This document shows positions 11,403 to 58,609 of a DNA stretch of 64,000 bases, in pieces (the stretch's first letter is position 1; the number at the start of each line of letters is the position of its first letter). The DNA is from Tupaia tana (Eukaryota > Chordata > Mammalia > Scandentia > Tupaiidae): positions 6,624,415 to 6,688,414 of the forward strand of contig JAKSZU010000008.1 in NCBI GenBank assembly GCA_026018925.1. The letters are read 5' to 3'. The notes beneath the pieces are model-generated. The model was given only the letters and a program-made list of their open reading frames with translations, made no database searches and was not told where the DNA came from. Position numbers and translations under genes: made by a program.

Positions 11403-11599
11403 TGGTGAGAGCTAAGCTATCCTATTTCGTTATCCTTTAGTTTATTCTCATGTTTAGTATTTCATTTCCTCTACCAGAATGAAGCACCTATACTTTCCAA
11501 CCATATAAAAAAAAAAACAAATTTAAAGGACTCTATTACACAAATCCACATTACAGAATTATGCTTTAAACAATTTTATTCTCTCAAAAGTACTTCTGG

Positions 11600-11861
11600 G
11601 GAACCAGCAGTTAGCGTAATGGCTATGTCACTGGACTCCCACGTAGTCGACCGCGGTTCGCGTCTCGGACCCGGTGGCTTACAACTCACGCCGGGCGCGT
11701 GTGCGTGCGTGCCCAAGATCCCGAGAGGAGAATGGAGGAGAAGGGATTGCGGCGTGACCATCCCCCCTGGGGGGTGATTTCTCGCTTTCTGTCTCTATGT
11801 CTCTCTCTGTCTGTCTGGCGAGCGCACGCGCCCTATAGCGAAAAAACCTCTCCAAAAAAAA
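11600..11861 (+). mobile_element. SINE-A2, first of a four-SINE array
   Basis: Nearly consensus. TSD AAAAGTACTTCTGG at 11586-11599 and 11862-11875. B box GGTTCGCGTCT. Confidence 0.93.
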
Positions 11862-11879
11862 AAAAGTACTTCTGGACTC

Positions 11880-12152
11880 TAGGAACCAGCAGATAGCCTA
11901 ATGGTTATATCTCTGGGCTCCCACATGGCCGACTGCGCTTTGAGTCCCAGACCCGGTAGCTTGAAACTCACACTGGGTGCATGTACACGCGTCCCCAAAA
12001 TCCTGACTGGAGAATGGAGGAGAAGGGATTGCCACATGGCCACCGCACCTCCAGCCCCCACCCAGGGGGTGATTTCTCGCTTTCTTTCTGCCTCTATGTA
12101 TCTCTCTCTGTTGAGCGCACACACCCAATAGCAAAAATCTCTCTTAAAAAAA
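11880..12152 (+). mobile_element. SINE-A, second of the array
   Basis: Older copy (GGAACCAGCAGATAGCCTAA), flanked on both sides by the AAGTACTTCTG motif shared by the whole array. Confidence 0.9.
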
Positions 12153-12162
12153 AGTACTTCTG

Positions 12163-12424
12163 TGGGACCAGCAGTTGGCATAATGGCTATGTCACTGAAC
12201 TCCCAAGTGGTGGACCACAGTTCGAGTCCCAGACCCAGTGGCTTAAACTCATGCTGGGCGTGTGTGACCAAGATTCCAAGAAGAGAATGGAGGAGAAGGG
12301 ATTGCAGTGTGGCCATACCCCCTGGGGGTGATTTCTCACTTTCTGTTTCTCTGTCTTTCTGGCAAGCGCACTTGGCGAGCGCACATGCCCTATAGCAAAA
12401 AAAAACTCTCCAAAAAAAAAAAAA
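12163..12424 (+). mobile_element. SINE-A, third of the array
   Basis: B box GGTTCGAGTCC is decayed to AGTTCGAGTCC. A small duplication (GCAAGCGCACTTGGCGAGCG) lies near the 3' end. The AAGTACTTCTGGG flank follows. Confidence 0.9.
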
Positions 12425-12433
12425 GTACTTCTG

Positions 12434-12577
12434 GGAGCCAGCAGGGGGTGTGGTGGCGAAGGCGCTGGACTCCCATATGGCTGGTGGTGTTCTGAGTCCT
12501 GAACACGGGAGCCTGTTTTCTTTCTCTCTCGTCAAACTTAAAAAAAGTAATAACAATAAATACATTTTTTTAAAAAG
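12434..12577 (+). mobile_element. SINE-B, fourth of the array
   Basis: GGTGTGGTGGCGAAGGCGCT head, short TTTCTTTCTCTCTCGTCAAA end and TAATAACAATAAATA tail. The downstream flank AAAAAGCACTCATGGACTC is a decayed form of the array target. Confidence 0.8.
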
Positions 12578-13127
12578 CACTCATGGACTCATTCATACTT
12601 ATTAAATGTTTTGGAAAGATGAAGCTAGTTCCTTTTCTGTGTTGTATATGTGAACAATGAAGTGGTTTCACAAATGTATATACTACCTTAAGACAATTCC
12701 TAAGAGTTTTACTTACCAAAACACATGAGCAAAAGTTATGTTAACTTTTACTGAAAGTAATGCCTTCTAAGACATTATACTTCTTCATGTGTGAAAGCTA
12801 AATGTGGCTTACTGCTGATAGTTTAGAGTCTTTAACAGTAAACAACAAGTTTAAAAGGACAAAAATCTGCGGGGATTCTAAGGAGTAGTGCAAGAAGGAT
12901 ATGTCAGAAAGAAACTTGGTTCTCTATTAACCAAATATGGAAACACGAGAGAAAAATTTTATCTTTAGAGCTATTTAAGCTCTCTTTGGCAAACATACGT
13001 ATTTTATTAATTAAAGAATGCTGAAAAGTAATTATATGCATATCATCATTGAAGACAGTTGATCAAATTATGAAGAAGTTGATCGAATTATGTTTAAGAC
13101 AGCTTTTTATTAAGATTCTAAAAGCCT

Positions 13128-13398
13128 GGGAACCAGCAGTTAGCGTAATGGCTATGTCGCTGGACTCCCACGTAGTCGACCGCGGCTCGCGTCTTGGACC
13201 CGGTGGCTTACAACTCACGCCGGGCGCGTGTGCGTGCGTGCCCAAGATCCCGAGAGGAGAATGGAGGAGAAGGGATTGCGGCGTGACCATCCCCCCTGGG
13301 GGGTGATTTCTTGCTTTCTGTCTCTATGTCTCTCTCTGTCTGTCTGGCGAGCGCACGCGCCCTATAGCGAAAAACCTCTCCAAAAAAAAAAAAAAAAA
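13128..13398 (+). mobile_element. SINE-A2
   Basis: Almost identical to the copy at 11600. 16-bp TSD AAGATTCTAAAAGCCT at 13112-13127 and 13399-13414 and a clean poly(A), so a recent insertion, about 200 bp from an RB1CC1 exon. Confidence 0.94.
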
Positions 13399-14444: not shown

Positions 14445-16690
14445 CAAAATGGGCATAGAAGGGCCATTTCTCAACACAATAAAAGCTATCTATGAAAAAC
14501 CCATAGCGAACATCATCCTCAATGGAGAAAAGCTGAAAGCTTTTCCACTAAAAAACGGGTACAAGACAAGGATGTTCACTTTCTCCACTCCTCTTCAATA
14601 TAGTACTAGAAGTCTTGGCCATTGCAATCAGAAAAGAGGAAAAAATAAAAGGCATTCAAATAGGAAAAGAAGAGGTGAAACTCTCTCTATTTGCAGATGA
14701 CATGATTGTATACATAGAAGACCCAATGGTTTCCATAAAAAAATTTCTGGAAGTAATACATGAATACAGTAACGTTGCAGGATACAAAATTAATATCCAG
14801 AAATCTATAGCATTTCTGTATACAAACAACAGGCAGACTGAGATGGAACTGAAAAAAGTTGTTCCATTTACCATAGCCACAAAAAGTATAAGATACTTAG
14901 GGATAAATCTAACTAAAGAAGTTAAAGACCTCCATAAGGAAAACTATGAGAAGATAAAAAAAGAAATTGAAAATGACACAAAAAAGTGGAAGGACATCCC
15001 ATGTTCCTGGATTGGAAGAATTAATATAATCAAAATGGCAATTTTACCCAAATTAATCTACCTATTTAATGCAATGCCAATCAAAGTACCAGACACATTC
15101 TTCACAGATCTAGGAAAGACAATCATAACGTTTGTCTGGAATCATAAAAGACCCCGTATTGCCAAAGCAGTTTTGCACAAGAAGAATGGAGTGGGCAGCA
15201 TCTCACTCCCTGACCCAAAAATATACTACAAAGCTGTGGTAATCAAAACAGCATGGTACTGGCACAGGAACAGACAGGTGGACTAATGGAACAGAATAGA
15301 GTCCCCAGGAATGAATGCTCAAACATACAGCCAACTGATTTTTGACAAGGGGCACCAGTCAATCCTGTGGGAAAAAGGATAACCTCTTCAGCAAATGGTG
15401 CTGGCAAAACTGGATCTCCACTTGCAGAAAGATGAATCTGAACCCCTACCTCTCACCTCTGACAAAAATAAAGTCAAGGTGGATCAAAGATCTAAATCTA
15501 AGACCTCAAACTATAAAACTGCTCCTTGAAAACACCAGGGAAACTCTGGGAGACATTGGGGTAGGGAAAAACTTCTTAAATAAGACTCCCAATGCACAGT
15601 CTATGATCCCTAAAATAGACAAGTGGGATTACATCAGACTAAGAAGTTTCTGCATGGCAGAAGACACAGTGATTAGTGTGAACAGACAGCCCTCAGAATG
15701 GGAAAATATTTTTGTAAACTATGCATCAGACAAGGGACTGATAACCAGAATCCACAAGGAACTCAAGCGGCTGTTCTGGAAAAAGACAATCAATCCTATT
15801 AAAAGATGGGAGAATGAGTTGAAAAAAACCACTTTCTAAAGATGACATACGAATAGCTAAAAGGCATATGAAAAAATGCTCAACATCCCTCATTGTAAGA
15901 GAAATGCACATCAAAACAACAATGAGATATCACCTAACCCCAGTCAGAATGTCTAAGATTAAAAAAACAAAAAATGATAAGTGCTGGAGGGGGTGTGGTG
16001 AAAAGGGAACTCTCTTACACTGCTGGTGGGACTGTAAATTGGTACAACCACTGTGGAGAACAATTTGGAGATTCCTCCAAAATCTACAAATAGAACTACC
16101 ATATGATCCAGCAATCCCACTCCTAGGTATCTACCCGAAGGACAGAAGAATACTTAATCGAAAAAGTGCTTGCACATCGATGTTTATTGCGGCGCACTTT
16201 TCACGATTGCTAAGTCATGGAAACAACCTAAATGCCCACGAACTGATGAATGGTTAGAAAAACTGTGGCACATATACTCAATGGAATACTATTCATCCAT
16301 AAAAAACAACAAATCCCTGACTTTTGAAAGGAAGTGGATGAATATGGAAGACTTACTGTTGAGTGAAGCAAGCCATGCTATGAAGGAGAGACATTGTATG
16401 TCCCCACTTAATATATACCGAGTGTCTGCACTCTAAATGTGTATATATATATATACACATATATATGTGTATATATATATATATTTTTGAAACCATTCTG
16501 CTTCTGTTGTTATAGAGTTTTAAAATTATACAAAATTATAAGTCATATTTTGAACATTATCTTTAAAATTCAGTATTTTGAGATTTTGAAAGTTGTTTGT
16601 AAACTGTCAAGAATTATAGAGTATGAGCTAAAATTTTTTGCTATGTAAAGTAAATGTTTGTGGAAAAATGTAAAAATAAATAAATGAAAA
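14445..16690 (+). mobile_element. L1 LINE, 5'-truncated, antisense to RB1CC1
   Basis: About 2.2 kb of L1 ORF2 (reverse transcriptase onward) plus 3' UTR. The RT motif FADD is seen at 14690-14701, and the C-terminal L1 signature ([20 protein letters not shown]) at about 16030-16085. The frame is broken by shifts near 14600, 15290-15340, 15840 and 16170-16250, so it is a dead copy. The 3' part contains a (TA)n stretch (16441-16482). TSD AAAAATATAGCTTCCT / AAAAATATAAGCTTCCT at 14429-14444 and 16691-16707 (one indel) proves retrotransposition. It is the least decayed of the three L1s. Confidence 0.92.
16441..16482. repeat. (TA)n-rich microsatellite in L1 3' UTR
   Basis: Alternating TATATA with CACA/TGTG interruptions, able to form a hairpin, lying directly after the L1 ORF2 end. 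Confidence 0.8.
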
Positions 16691-31015: not shown

Positions 31016-31266
31016 CGGGGCCAGTAGATGTTGTAATGGTTATGTTATTGCACTCCCATGTGGTGGACTGCAGTTCGAGTGCTGGACCCTGTGGCTTGGA
31101 ACTCACCCTGGGCACATGTGATGTATGCCCCAAATCCTGAAAGGAGAATGGAGAAGGGATTGCGGTGTGGCCATCCACCTGGGAGGTGATTTCTCACTTT
31201 CTGTCTGTCTCTCCACCAGGCACAAATGCCCTATAGCAAAAATGTCTCTTTAAAAAAAAAAAAAGA
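31016..31266 (+). mobile_element. SINE-A, first of a two-SINE array
   Basis: Flanked by GCATCTGTTG (31007-31015) and GTATCTGTTGG (31270-31280). B box AGTTCGAGTGC. Confidence 0.87.
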
Positions 31267-31279
31267 AGAGTATCTGTTG

Positions 31280-31459
31280 GAGTCGGCAGAGGTATGGTGG
31301 TTATAAGGGCACTGAACTCCCTCATGGCCAGCCACAGTTCCAGTCTTGGACCTGGCGGCTTGCTTTCTCTCTCTCTCTCTGTCCCTCTCTGGTCAAATCA
31401 AAATAAGTAAATAAATTAAGTTAAATAAAATAATTCATTAAAGAAAACAGTTTGGCAAT

Positions 31460-37026: not shown

Positions 37027-37267
37027 AAAAAAAGGTTTTTTTTGGTTGGGCTTGGAGCATGTGCACTCACCATAGAGAGAGACAGTGAGAGGCAAAGTGA
37101 GAAGTCATCTTCCAGAGAGGATGACCACACTGCAATCCTTTCTCCTCCTGGGACTCTGGCATGCACGCACATGTGCCTGGCTGGATTTTTAAGCCATGGG
37201 ATCCACGACTTGATCCACAGTCAGCCATGTGAGAGTCCAAGAACTTTGCTATGCTATCTGTTGGCCC
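37027..37267 (-). mobile_element. Old SINE-A, first of a minus-strand array
   Basis: GGGCCAACAGATAGCATAGC head. Flanks AACAAGATATCTTTTTTTAA (37006) and AACAAGGTATCATTTTTTAA (37269). Confidence 0.84.
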
Positions 37268-37288
37268 AAACAAGGTATCATTTTTTAA

Positions 37289-37521
37289 AGAGAGAATTTT
37301 GCTATAGACAACGTGCACTTGCTGGAGAGACAGAAAGCAAGAAATCACCCCCCAGGGGGTATGGCCATGCTGCAATCCCATTTCTTTCATTCTCTTCTCG
37401 GGATTTTGGGCACACACGCACATGTGCCCGGCATGAGTTTTAAGCCGCCAGGTTCAGGACTCAAACTGCAGTCGACTATGTGGGAGTTCAGTGATATAAC
37501 CATTATGCCATCTGCTCGTCC
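37289..37521 (-). mobile_element. SINE-A, second of the minus-strand array
   Basis: TSD CAAGGTATCATTTTTTAA / CAAGATATCATTTTTTAA at 37271-37288 and 37522-37539. Confidence 0.9.
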
Positions 37522-37635
37522 CAAGATATCATTTTTTAACTACCTTAGATGACTTCTAATGATTTTTTAAAAATATTGCTGACAAGATTAAGAGAGATTC
37601 TACTGGCACATCTGTGACTAAAATATAAACTGGTA

Positions 37636-46439: not shown

Positions 46440-47257
46440 AGCGCCAACAGGCGCTTGTGTTGTTTACAGAGGCCGGCGGGCTTGCCCAGCTGGCTGACTG
46501 TCCTGCAGGAACGTGACTGTCAACAGAGAGCGCATCGGCCTCCCCACCTCACGGGACGAGCACACGGCCGAGGCTGGACGGCAAGCCCGAATTACGAAAC
46601 CAGAGGCGGTCACCACAGCAGTCCTCGGGCGGCCGAGGGCTACACGTCCTCCCCTCGGAGGCTGCCATCTCTGCTGCTGGCTACTGTATGTCTTCTCCCA
46701 CCACGAGAAGTTGTGAAATCAGCGTGCACACCGCATCCCAAATCTATCGGCAGGGCGGGCGGAGGCTGAGTCATCCCTAGGAGTAACTTTATACCGATCC
46801 TCGCACTCCGGGGTCGGGACAAAGACATCATCTCTCCGTCCCTCCCACTCTGTACACTTCGTTCGGCCTCGGCCCAACTCCGCTCTCCGGTTTCCCGAGC
46901 CCAACACGCCACTGGGGCTGAGCCTTGGCAGCGGGGACCGAGGCACGGATGCGTCCGGGTGGGTCCGGGCGCCTCTCGTCCTCGGCCACTCGCGCCACTG
47001 GGCCGGGTGCTGGGCGGCGGCGCTCCCGGGGCCAGGCGGAGGAAGCCGCGGGCAGCCTCGCACCGCCACGACCCGGTGGGGCATCGGCTCGAACCGCTTT
47101 TGTTTCCTCTGGAGCTGTCGCGCAAGGAAGGCGACCGCTGGGCAACACCTGCCGGGGCCGCACACACCTGCGCGCGGGGACGCCGGCGGGCCCACCCTGC
47201 CCGGACTGGCCGCGCGGCCGCGGTGCCAGAGGGGGCAGGGGCGCGGGCGGCGGCAGC

Positions 47258-47264
47258 ACTTACC
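47258..47264 (-). other. RB1CC1: Candidate RB1CC1 exon 1 splice donor
   Basis: Read on the minus strand, CTGCCTG is followed by GTAAGT at 47263-47258, a near-ideal donor in the middle of the CpG island. It would end a non-coding exon 1 starting somewhere around 47.4-47.7 kb. The start site cannot be fixed from sequence. Confidence 0.55.
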
Positions 47265-47716
47265 AGGCAGCGCCTCCTCCTCTGCCAGTGGCAGCAGCTG
47301 GGCCGGCGGCCCCGGGCACCATCTTCCGCCACCGCCTCGTCCTCGGCGGCGGCTACCGAGCGCCCATTCGGCACCGCCAACCGACACGACTGCCGGCGTC
47401 CCGGGTGCCGACCCACCCGCCGCGGCCCCGAACTCCGGGCGGGAGGGAGGGCTGGGCGCAGAGAGATGCGGTCAGGCCCCTCGGCTCTAGGTCGGGGGCC
47501 GGAAGACAGGGGCCGCGGCCTGTCAGAGCCGAGGGGCCCGGGCAACTGGGGGACCCCGAGGCAGCGCCTAGGGCTCGGCAGGGCCGCGGACGCGGCCGCG
47601 GTCGGGTTTGTTATTGTCGACTCCGTCCCTTCCTCCGCGGAGCACGCCGGGAAACGGCAGGCCGGGGGAGGGGCGCGCCGGGCAGCCGGGCGGCGCAGAG
47701 AGGCGTCTGCGCAGGT

Positions 47717-47724
47717 CCGGAAGT
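47717..47724 (+). promoter_or_regulatory. ETS/GABP-type motif CCGGAAGT
   Basis: A perfect 8-bp ETS-family core in the densest CpG part, about 450 bp upstream of the candidate exon 1 donor. Such sites are common near start sites of housekeeping mammalian genes. Binding here is inferred. Confidence 0.45.
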
Positions 47725-47868
47725 CGGCGCGCTGCCTGGAAAGGGGCGCGCCCGCCCCCGGACCGGCTCGACTTGGCCCAGGACTTGGCTGTCCTGCCCT
47801 GACCCGGGGACACAGTGCTGGGCGGCCGGTTGTGGTGCTCGCCGCTTCCCGGCGCGGACGTCCCCAAG

Positions 47869-47874
47869 GTGAGC
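47869..47874 (+). other. Candidate plus-strand donor of a divergent transcript
   Basis: CCCAAG is followed by GTGAGC on the plus strand near the upper edge of the CpG island. It could end the first exon of a divergent non-coding RNA. No downstream exon can be supported. Confidence 0.3.
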
Positions 47875-48412
47875 TCGACCTTCCCTGCCATAGCGAGTAG
47901 GCCCGGCCTAGGCCGACCTCGCCGACGGTCGGATCAGCCCCGGGGAGAGGGGCTCACCCCGCCACCCTCTGTTGGAAGAGCGAGGCTGATCAGGGTCTGC
48001 TGCCTTGTCGCCTGTCCCCAGAGCAGGCGCGGCCGGCCCTAGGTCTGTGACAGGATGCCCTACCGGGGGCTTGACCCACTATCGCCCCAGCACCCCGACC
48101 GCCGCGACTGCGTGCAGCAAGCTAGTGTCCCTGGTAACGGCTAGGGTGGGGGCCCAGTTTTCCTCGGACCAGGTAAGGAAAGATTAAAAACAAAAACAAA
48201 AAAACTTACGTGAGAGAAAAGGGCCAAGGCTAGGCCGACTGGGATGCAGACGTCGACGCCAAGACCACCAGCGTTCAGCCCTGTAAGTACTGTGTTGTTC
48301 GAGGCTCGAGGCTCGCCCTTAGCCTGAACAGTGGTGGATGGACGGTTTGTGAAGATGATCGGCCACAAGACTTAAGCTTCAGAATCTGAGGAGATGTTAC
48401 AAGCATGAGAAA

Positions 48413-57841: not shown

Positions 57842-58088
57842 CTTTTTTTTTTTTTTTTTTTTAGATTTTTGCTGTAGGGCACATGCGCTGGCCAGAGAGA
57901 CAGAAATCAAGAAATCACTTCCACTGCCCCTAGGGGTGGCCACGCCACAATCTCTTTGTTCTCCTCTCAGGATTTTGGGCGTGCACACATGTGCCTGATA
58001 TGAGTTTCAAGACACCAGGTCTGGGATTCAAACCATGGTCAACCACATGAGACTCCAACACCTTCACTACAGCTCCTCTTGCTAGCCC
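57842..58088 (-). mobile_element. SINE-A, first of a minus-strand row of three
   Basis: CTTGTTTTGTTTTTACTTTT before and CTTGTTTTTACATTTTT after suggest a TSD. Confidence 0.84.
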
Positions 58089-58098
58089 TTGTTTTTAC

Positions 58099-58335
58099 AT
58101 TTTTGTCATAGGGCACATGGACTTGCTGGGGAGAGAGAGAGAGGGGGAAAGTGAGAAATCACCCCTCAGGCATATGCTACACTGCAATCCCTTCTCCATT
58201 CTCCTCTTGGGATTTTGGGCACATAAGCCCACATCCTGCCCAGTGGGTTTTCAAGCCACTGGGTCCAGAACTCCACCCCCGGAGTTGCCCATGTGGAATC
58301 TAGCACCTTAACCACCATACCACCTGCTAGTCCCA
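58099..58335 (-). mobile_element. SINE-A, second of the row
   Basis: GGGACTAGCAGGTGGTATGG head on the minus strand. The B-box part is decayed (GGAGTTCTGGACC). Confidence 0.82.
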
Positions 58336-58349
58336 GAAGTTTTAAGTTT

Positions 58350-58609
58350 TTTGGTTTGGCTTTTGGCCATAAGATGCATATGTTCGCCTGAGAGAGACAG
58401 AGTCAGTAAGAGGAAAAGTGAAAAATCACCCCCTCACACATCGGGGAGGATGACCACATGGCAATCTTTTCTTCATTCTCTTCCTGGAATTTGGAGCATG
58501 CACACACATGTGCCTGGCATGATTTTCAAACCACCAGGTCCAGGCCTCGAACCCTTGTAGGTCATGTAGGAGTCCGATGTCTTAAACCACCAAGCCACCT
58601 GCTCGTCCT
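58350..58609 (-). mobile_element. SINE-A, third of the row
   Basis: Flanks AGAAGTTTTAAGTTTTT (58335-58351) and AGAAGTACCAAGTTTTT (58611-58627). Confidence 0.83.

What the first reader, a model, noticed from the sequence alone, without database searches (positions are those of the whole stretch)
11586..12600. Four SINEs stacked at one target site
Four same-strand SINEs (11600, 11880, 12163, 12434) are separated and flanked by one motif, AAGTACTTCTGG, seen at 11588, 11864, about 12152 and about 12424. A decayed form, AGCACTCATGG, follows the last. This looks like repeated insertion at one L1-endonuclease site: each new poly(A)-TSD junction recreates the target. It includes both SINE-A and SINE-B, so it is not a plain tandem duplication. 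The motif is seen in the sequence; the mechanism is inference.
Basis: partly seen in the sequence, partly recalled or inferred. Interest (0 to 1): 0.75.

Follow-up and report, generated by a model that had tools for sequence, protein, structure and literature searches.

The report
Four SINEs stacked at one site
In what looks like a mammalian genome, four short jumping elements appear to have landed one after another at the same small target sequence, each leaving a copy of it behind; it is a clear and deep example of a process already known from Alu and other SINEs.

Summary
Four same-strand tRNA-derived SINEs (three type A, one type B) lie head to tail at 11599-12576. Each starts at a copy of AAAAGTACTTCT(G); GTACTTCTG after an A-run occurs only at these four places in the window. 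They are independent insertions, not a duplicated block: S1's closest copy is 1.5 kb away (98.4%), S2 and S3 share 73.3%, and single-clade trees are rejected (S1-S3 p=0.0016; S2+S3 p=0.028). The target copy before S2 is longer (GGACTCT) and its likely mate lies beyond S4. On that reading S2 preceded S3 and S4 (8 of 24 orders fit), and S1, the least decayed, came last. S4's divergence leans against this order (p=0.10). A two-element stack at 37522-37028 looks alike. Same-strand abutments number 14 against 2.7 in random placement, uncorrected for endonuclease preference. Tandem SINE insertion near earlier SINEs is known for Alu and CanSINEs. Orthologous sites could not be examined.

The parts
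11586..11598 (+). Target copy T1 (AAAAGTACTTCTG), 5' TSD of S1, preceded by CTCTC (endonuclease-like site TC|AAAA)
11599..11865 (+). S1, type A SINE with poly(A); least decayed of the three: 98.5% non-CpG identity to a consensus of five young copies (S1 is one of the five), 22 of 23 CpGs kept
11862..11880 (+). Target copy T2, long form AAAAGTACTTCTGGACTCT; between S1 and S2
11881..12153 (+). S2, type A SINE with poly(A); 83.3% non-CpG identity to young consensus, 5 of 23 CpGs kept; inferred to precede S3 and S4
12150..12163 (+). Target copy T3 (AAAAGTACTTCTGT), between S2 and S3
12164..12424 (+). S3, type A SINE with poly(A); 88.9% non-CpG identity to young consensus, 4 of 23 CpGs kept
12421..12433 (+). 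Target copy T4 (AAAAGTACTTCT, plus a G shared with the SINE start), between S3 and S4
12433..12576 (+). S4, type B SINE (shorter, with AATAAA and a T-run near the 3' end)
12573..12590 (+). Target copy T5, decayed (AAAAGCACTCATGGACTC), likely mate of T2
37028..37522 (-). Second stack: a less decayed type A element 5' of a more decayed one; target copies TGATATCTT, TGATACCTTGTTT and GATATCTTGTTA at the three junctions

Best explanation
Four separate target-primed reverse transcription events used one L1-endonuclease target, AAAAGTACTTCTGGACTC. S2 went in with a long (about 19 nt) target-site duplication, leaving a target copy on each side. S3 and S4 later inserted at the downstream copy with short (about 12-13 nt) duplications. 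S1 inserted last, at the upstream copy. Shown: the elements, the shared junctions, the independence of S1, S2 and S3, and the low decay of S1. Inferred: that L1 protein did the work, the order S2 before S3 and S4, and that T5 is the mate of T2.
For: Four of four element starts carry the same A-anchored target, 4 of 3048 anchored sites in the window. Clades {S1,S2,S3} (p 0.0016) and {S2,S3} (p 0.028) are rejected by two-tree AU tests; S1 pairs with the copy at 13129 (96/89; the bootstrap had not fully settled). S2-S3 identity is 73.3%, lower than that of either to its nearest young copy (78.8% and 84.7%). S4 is another SINE type. The GACTC extension stands only before S2 and beyond S4; 8 of 24 orders rebuild the layout, all with S2 before S3 and S4. 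A second stack at 37 kb has the same layout: longer copies flank the more decayed 3' element, a short copy precedes the less decayed 5' one. Same-strand abutments of 40 bp or less: 14 against 2.7 in random placement (largest of 2000 trials 9; so the 11 outside this stack also exceed all trials); opposite-strand 5 against 2.5.
Against: S4 diverges more from the type B consensus (19 of 98) than S2 from type A (17 of 148), p=0.10, which leans against S2 before S4. S2 and S3 are not separated in age: 16.7% against 11.1% from the young consensus (p=0.12), reversed against 13 mid-age copies (10.5% against 13.8%). T5 differs from T2 at 5 of 16 places, its local-alignment control is weak (172 of 5000), and S4's own TSD test fails (p 0.58). 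At 37 kb the younger element's own TSD test gives only p 0.13. Of the 14 same-strand pairs, the 3 stack pairs and the 37 kb pair share a target clearly, 2 more only perhaps (47 of 1623 null flank pairs score as high), and the other 8 do not. The abutment control ignores endonuclease preference. No orthologous site was seen.
Confidence: 0.87

Rival explanations
1. Tandem duplication or unequal crossing-over of one SINE-plus-motif block, followed by divergence.
For: Start-to-start spacing of the four elements is fairly regular (282, 282 and 270 bp) and four motif copies are nearly identical.
Against: The three type A elements are not each other's closest relatives and a common clade is rejected. 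S1 keeps 22 of 23 CpGs while S2 and S3 keep 5 and 4. S4 is another SINE type. The spacing is about one type A element plus target.
Confidence: 0.03
2. Same insertion process but another order: S4 (type B) first, then the others, with the GACTC match between T2 and T5 arising by chance.
For: S4 shows the greatest divergence of the four from its own family consensus.
Against: If S2 had inserted upstream of S4 with a long duplication, T2 should read into the start of S4 (GGGAGCC); it reads GGACTCT, and T5 reads GGACTCA. The divergence difference is not significant (p=0.10).
Confidence: 0.12
3. Chance insertion of SINEs next to one another in a very SINE-dense region, with the flanking motif homogenised later by gene conversion.
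For: 79 SINEs cover 17.6 of 64 kb.
Against: Conversion would have to spread a 12-nt flank without homogenising the elements beside it, which stay 73-84% alike. Same-strand abutment exceeds random placement fivefold.
Confidence: 0.03

Closest known systems
Tandem Alu insertions (El-Sawy and Deininger 2005; paper not held, known here only through passages and section 27 of PMC3783187 and passages of PMC3415434)
   Same: SINEs inserted beside an existing SINE; as reported in PMC3783187, the cleavage site persists at the head of the first Alu but not at its tail, and 27 insertions were split about equally between heads and tails.
   Different: Different SINE families and host; here four elements of two SINE types share one readable target, and both head-side and tail-side copies appear to have been used at one locus.
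CanSINE insertion hotspots and tandem arrays in Felidae (PMC4084570; an abstract passage, further passages and sections 5 and 11 seen)
   Same: Existing SINE loci frequently targeted, giving tandem arrays; independent insertions with overlapping TSDs.
   Different: The insertions described at loci 133135 and 212075 are largely in different species; here four are in one genome and relatives were not seen.
SINE insertion hot spots in a retrovirus-like element (Cantrell et al. 2001; title seen in a reference list, paper not held)
   Same: Repeated SINE insertion at preferred places (from the title only).
   Different: The host sequence there is a retrovirus-like element; here the target is a short sequence copied at SINE junctions.

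Membership tests
L1-mobilised (TPRT) SINE insertion | Target-site duplication flanking the element | tested here: met
   S1, S2 and S3 flank scores p 0.006-0.017 against swapped flanks; S4 fails this test, p 0.58
L1-mobilised (TPRT) SINE insertion | A-rich 3' tail and a T-run/purine nick site on the bottom strand (consensus recalled) | tested here: met
   Poly(A) ends S1-S3; S4 ends in a mixed A/T-rich tail; pre-stack site on the bottom strand reads ACTTTT|GAGAGA
L1-mobilised (TPRT) SINE insertion | Mobilisation by L1 protein | not testable with these tools
   Reading frames that I recognise as L1 ORF2-like lie at 14615-15839; no database search and no activity shown
Tandem SINE insertion at a reused target | Members are independent insertions, not one duplicated block | tested here: met
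Tandem SINE insertion at a reused target | Same target sequence at every junction | tested here: met
   T1-T4 identical over AAAAGTACTTCTG (last G of T4 shared with S4); T5 is decayed, 11 of 16 to T2
Tandem SINE insertion at a reused target | Intermediate states in related genomes | not tested
   The one search sent for the window's own genome did not complete; no tool used here offered mammalian relatives
Tandem duplication | Copies are each other's closest relatives | tested here: not met

The most novel reading that the evidence does not exclude
In this lineage SINE insertion returns to earlier insertion sites much more often than base composition alone predicts, so that target copies act as self-renewing landing sites whose TSD lengths record the order of insertion.
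Probability: 0.15. Interest if true: 0.5.

Novelty: new member of a known kind. Interest (0 to 1): 0.3.

Why it matters
It is a compact, readable record of repeated SINE insertion at one site. Such stacks warn against treating the presence of a SINE at a locus as a single event in phylogenetics, and a mix of long and short target copies offers a way to order insertions without relatives. The principle itself is not new.

Tried and rejected
Naming the organism and the SINE families failed: a paper search for two SINE core strings gave 0 papers, a viral-contig scan for one 23-base core gave 0 matches, and Rfam gave 0 matches at gathering thresholds. Dating S4 against S2, and S2 against S3, by divergence was inconclusive.

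A shared target in the other same-strand pairs was clear only at 37 kb; 31018/31279 and 58348/58097 are possible (47 of 1623 null flank pairs score as high); 60788/61015 is weaker (104 of 1623); 9488/9745, 24173/24431, 28276/28517 and 49315/49043 are not supported. Three more of the 14 pairs (34408/34151, 43377/43215, 58097/57850) were scored only against other pairs and showed no shared target; 43215 and 34408 are 5'-truncated matches. The cross-pair control includes stack-to-stack comparisons; one search excludes comparisons within 600 bp.

The abutment simulation places elements at random with no endonuclease preference, so part of the excess may only reflect A-rich tails as targets; PMC3783187 saw 20 Alus in same-strand Alu tails against 10.3 under uniform placement but 17.2 after correcting for nick sites. 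For the tree, 33 of 58 long type A copies were used, those with the highest identity to the young consensus; 25 were left out. For the type B consensus 11 of 12 listed copies were used; 14170 was left out.

Papers that gave nothing useful: PMC3272032 (no matching passage), PMC3024322 (passages), PMC12458276 (passages), PMC12840619 (passages; the 2005 Alu paper only in its reference list as far as the passages show). PMC9599045 was seen in a listing only. One paper search gave 0 papers.

Full report
What is there. Bases 11586-12590 hold four same-strand SINEs. A profile built from 27 type A copies finds 83 matches in the window, merged to 79 elements, 12 of them type B, covering 17.6 of 64 kb. 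Types A and B share about the first 81 positions; B is shorter and ends in AATAAA-like and T-rich sequence. Reading frames at 14615-15839 look to me like L1 ORF2, by eye and not by a database search, and the window looks mammalian (inference). The species was not identified.

The shared motif. AAGTACTTCTGG is exact at 11588, 11864 and 12423 and has one mismatch at 12152. Counting up to two mismatches the window has 13 hits against 7.3 expected, which is unremarkable, but the only hits with zero or one mismatch are the four in the stack. After an A-run, GTACTTCTG occurs at 4 of 3048 sites, all four in the stack. The end of the motif overlaps the SINE's own GGG start, as the copy at 13129 shows: its 16-nt duplication (AAGATTCTAAAAGCCT) ends just before GGGAACC.

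Junctions. T1 AAAAGTACTTCTG|GGGAACC (S1). T2 AAAAGTACTTCTGGACTCT|AGGAACC (S2). T3 AAAAGTACTTCTGT|GGGACC (S3). T4 AAAAGTACTTCT|GGGAGCC (S4). T5 AAAAGCACTCATGGACTCATTC (after S4). T2 is longer than the other copies before elements, and its extra GACTC recurs only in T5. T5 matches the 16 bases of T2 after the A-run at 11; besides T2 itself and T4, one other site of 3047 does as well. A local-alignment control is less impressive, 172 of 5000.

Independence. Non-CpG identity to a consensus of five young copies is 98.5% for S1 (itself one of the five), 83.3% for S2 and 88.9% for S3; kept CpGs are 22, 5 and 4 of 23. S1 is 98.4% identical to the copy at 13129 but 78.8% to S2 and 83.8% to S3; S2 and S3 are 73.3% identical. 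In a tree of 33 of the 58 long type A copies, forcing S1-S3 together is rejected (p 0.0016), and so is S2+S3 (p 0.028); S1 and 13129 are sisters with 96/89 support, with the note that the bootstrap had not fully settled and 19 of 30 inner branches are open. S4 is type B. One duplicated block is therefore very unlikely.

Order. Treating each insertion as duplicating either the short or the long target, 8 of 24 orders rebuild the observed layout, and in all eight S2 precedes S3 and S4; S1 is free. S1's low decay makes it last. S3 and S4 are not ordered between themselves. Divergence does not settle S2 against S3 (p 0.12; reversed with another reference set). S4 is, if anything, more diverged than S2 (19 of 98 against 17 of 148, p 0.10), which leans against the inferred order and is left as an open point.

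Mechanism. The pre-stack site reads ACTTTT|GAGAGA on the bottom strand, an acceptable L1 endonuclease site (from general knowledge), and it still stands upstream of S1. S1 most likely used this head copy. S3 and S4 lie on the tail side of S2, where the copy follows a poly(A) tail.

Wider picture. Same-strand neighbours within 40 bp number 14 against 2.7 in random placement (largest of 2000 trials 9), opposite-strand 5 against 2.5; the simulation ignores endonuclease preference. Three of the 14 are this stack. One further pair, at 37522-37028 on the minus strand, shows the same arrangement: TGATATCTT before the less decayed element (86.1% non-CpG identity), TGATACCTTGTTT between, GATATCTTGTTA after the more decayed one (72.3%). 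Its flank match has 14 of 1623 null pairs as high; the older element's TSD has p 0.0009, the younger one's only 0.13. Two other pairs are possible cases, and 8 of 14 show no shared target.

Literature. PMC3783187 (passages and section 27 seen) reports that El-Sawy and Deininger 2005 noted persistence of the cleavage site at the Alu head but not the tail, with about equal numbers beside heads and tails in 27 insertions, and finds no enrichment of polymorphic Alus near other Alus after correction for nick-site preference. PMC3415434 (passages seen) reports a bias of new Alu inserts towards other SINEs and calls tandem Alu inserts common. PMC4084570 (passages and sections 5 and 11 seen) reports CanSINE hotspots with overlapping TSDs and tandem arrays. 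The 2005 paper itself is not held. The finding is thus a new and fairly deep example of a known kind.

Noticed in passing
37028-37522: Second SINE stack with a shared target at three junctions, more decayed element 3' and less decayed one 5', minus strand.
   Followed up: yes
57850-58608: Three same-strand SINEs in a row (minus strand); the first two have similar 5' flanks (ACTTGGTACTTCT and ACTTAAAACTTCT), the third seems by eye to have its own GTAAAAACAA duplication.
   Followed up: partly
31018-31442: Type A SINE followed by a type B SINE, with similar flanks (AGCATCTGTTG and AGTATCTGTTG) before each.
   Followed up: partly
13129-13391: Young type A SINE, closest relative of S1 (98.4%) only 1.5 kb away, with a 16-nt target-site duplication.
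   Followed up: partly
46640-47900: Overlapping long reading frames on both strands in a stretch of 64-77% G+C, perhaps a CpG island rather than coding sequence.
   Followed up: partly
14615-15839: Two reading frames that look like L1 ORF2, by eye only.
   Followed up: no
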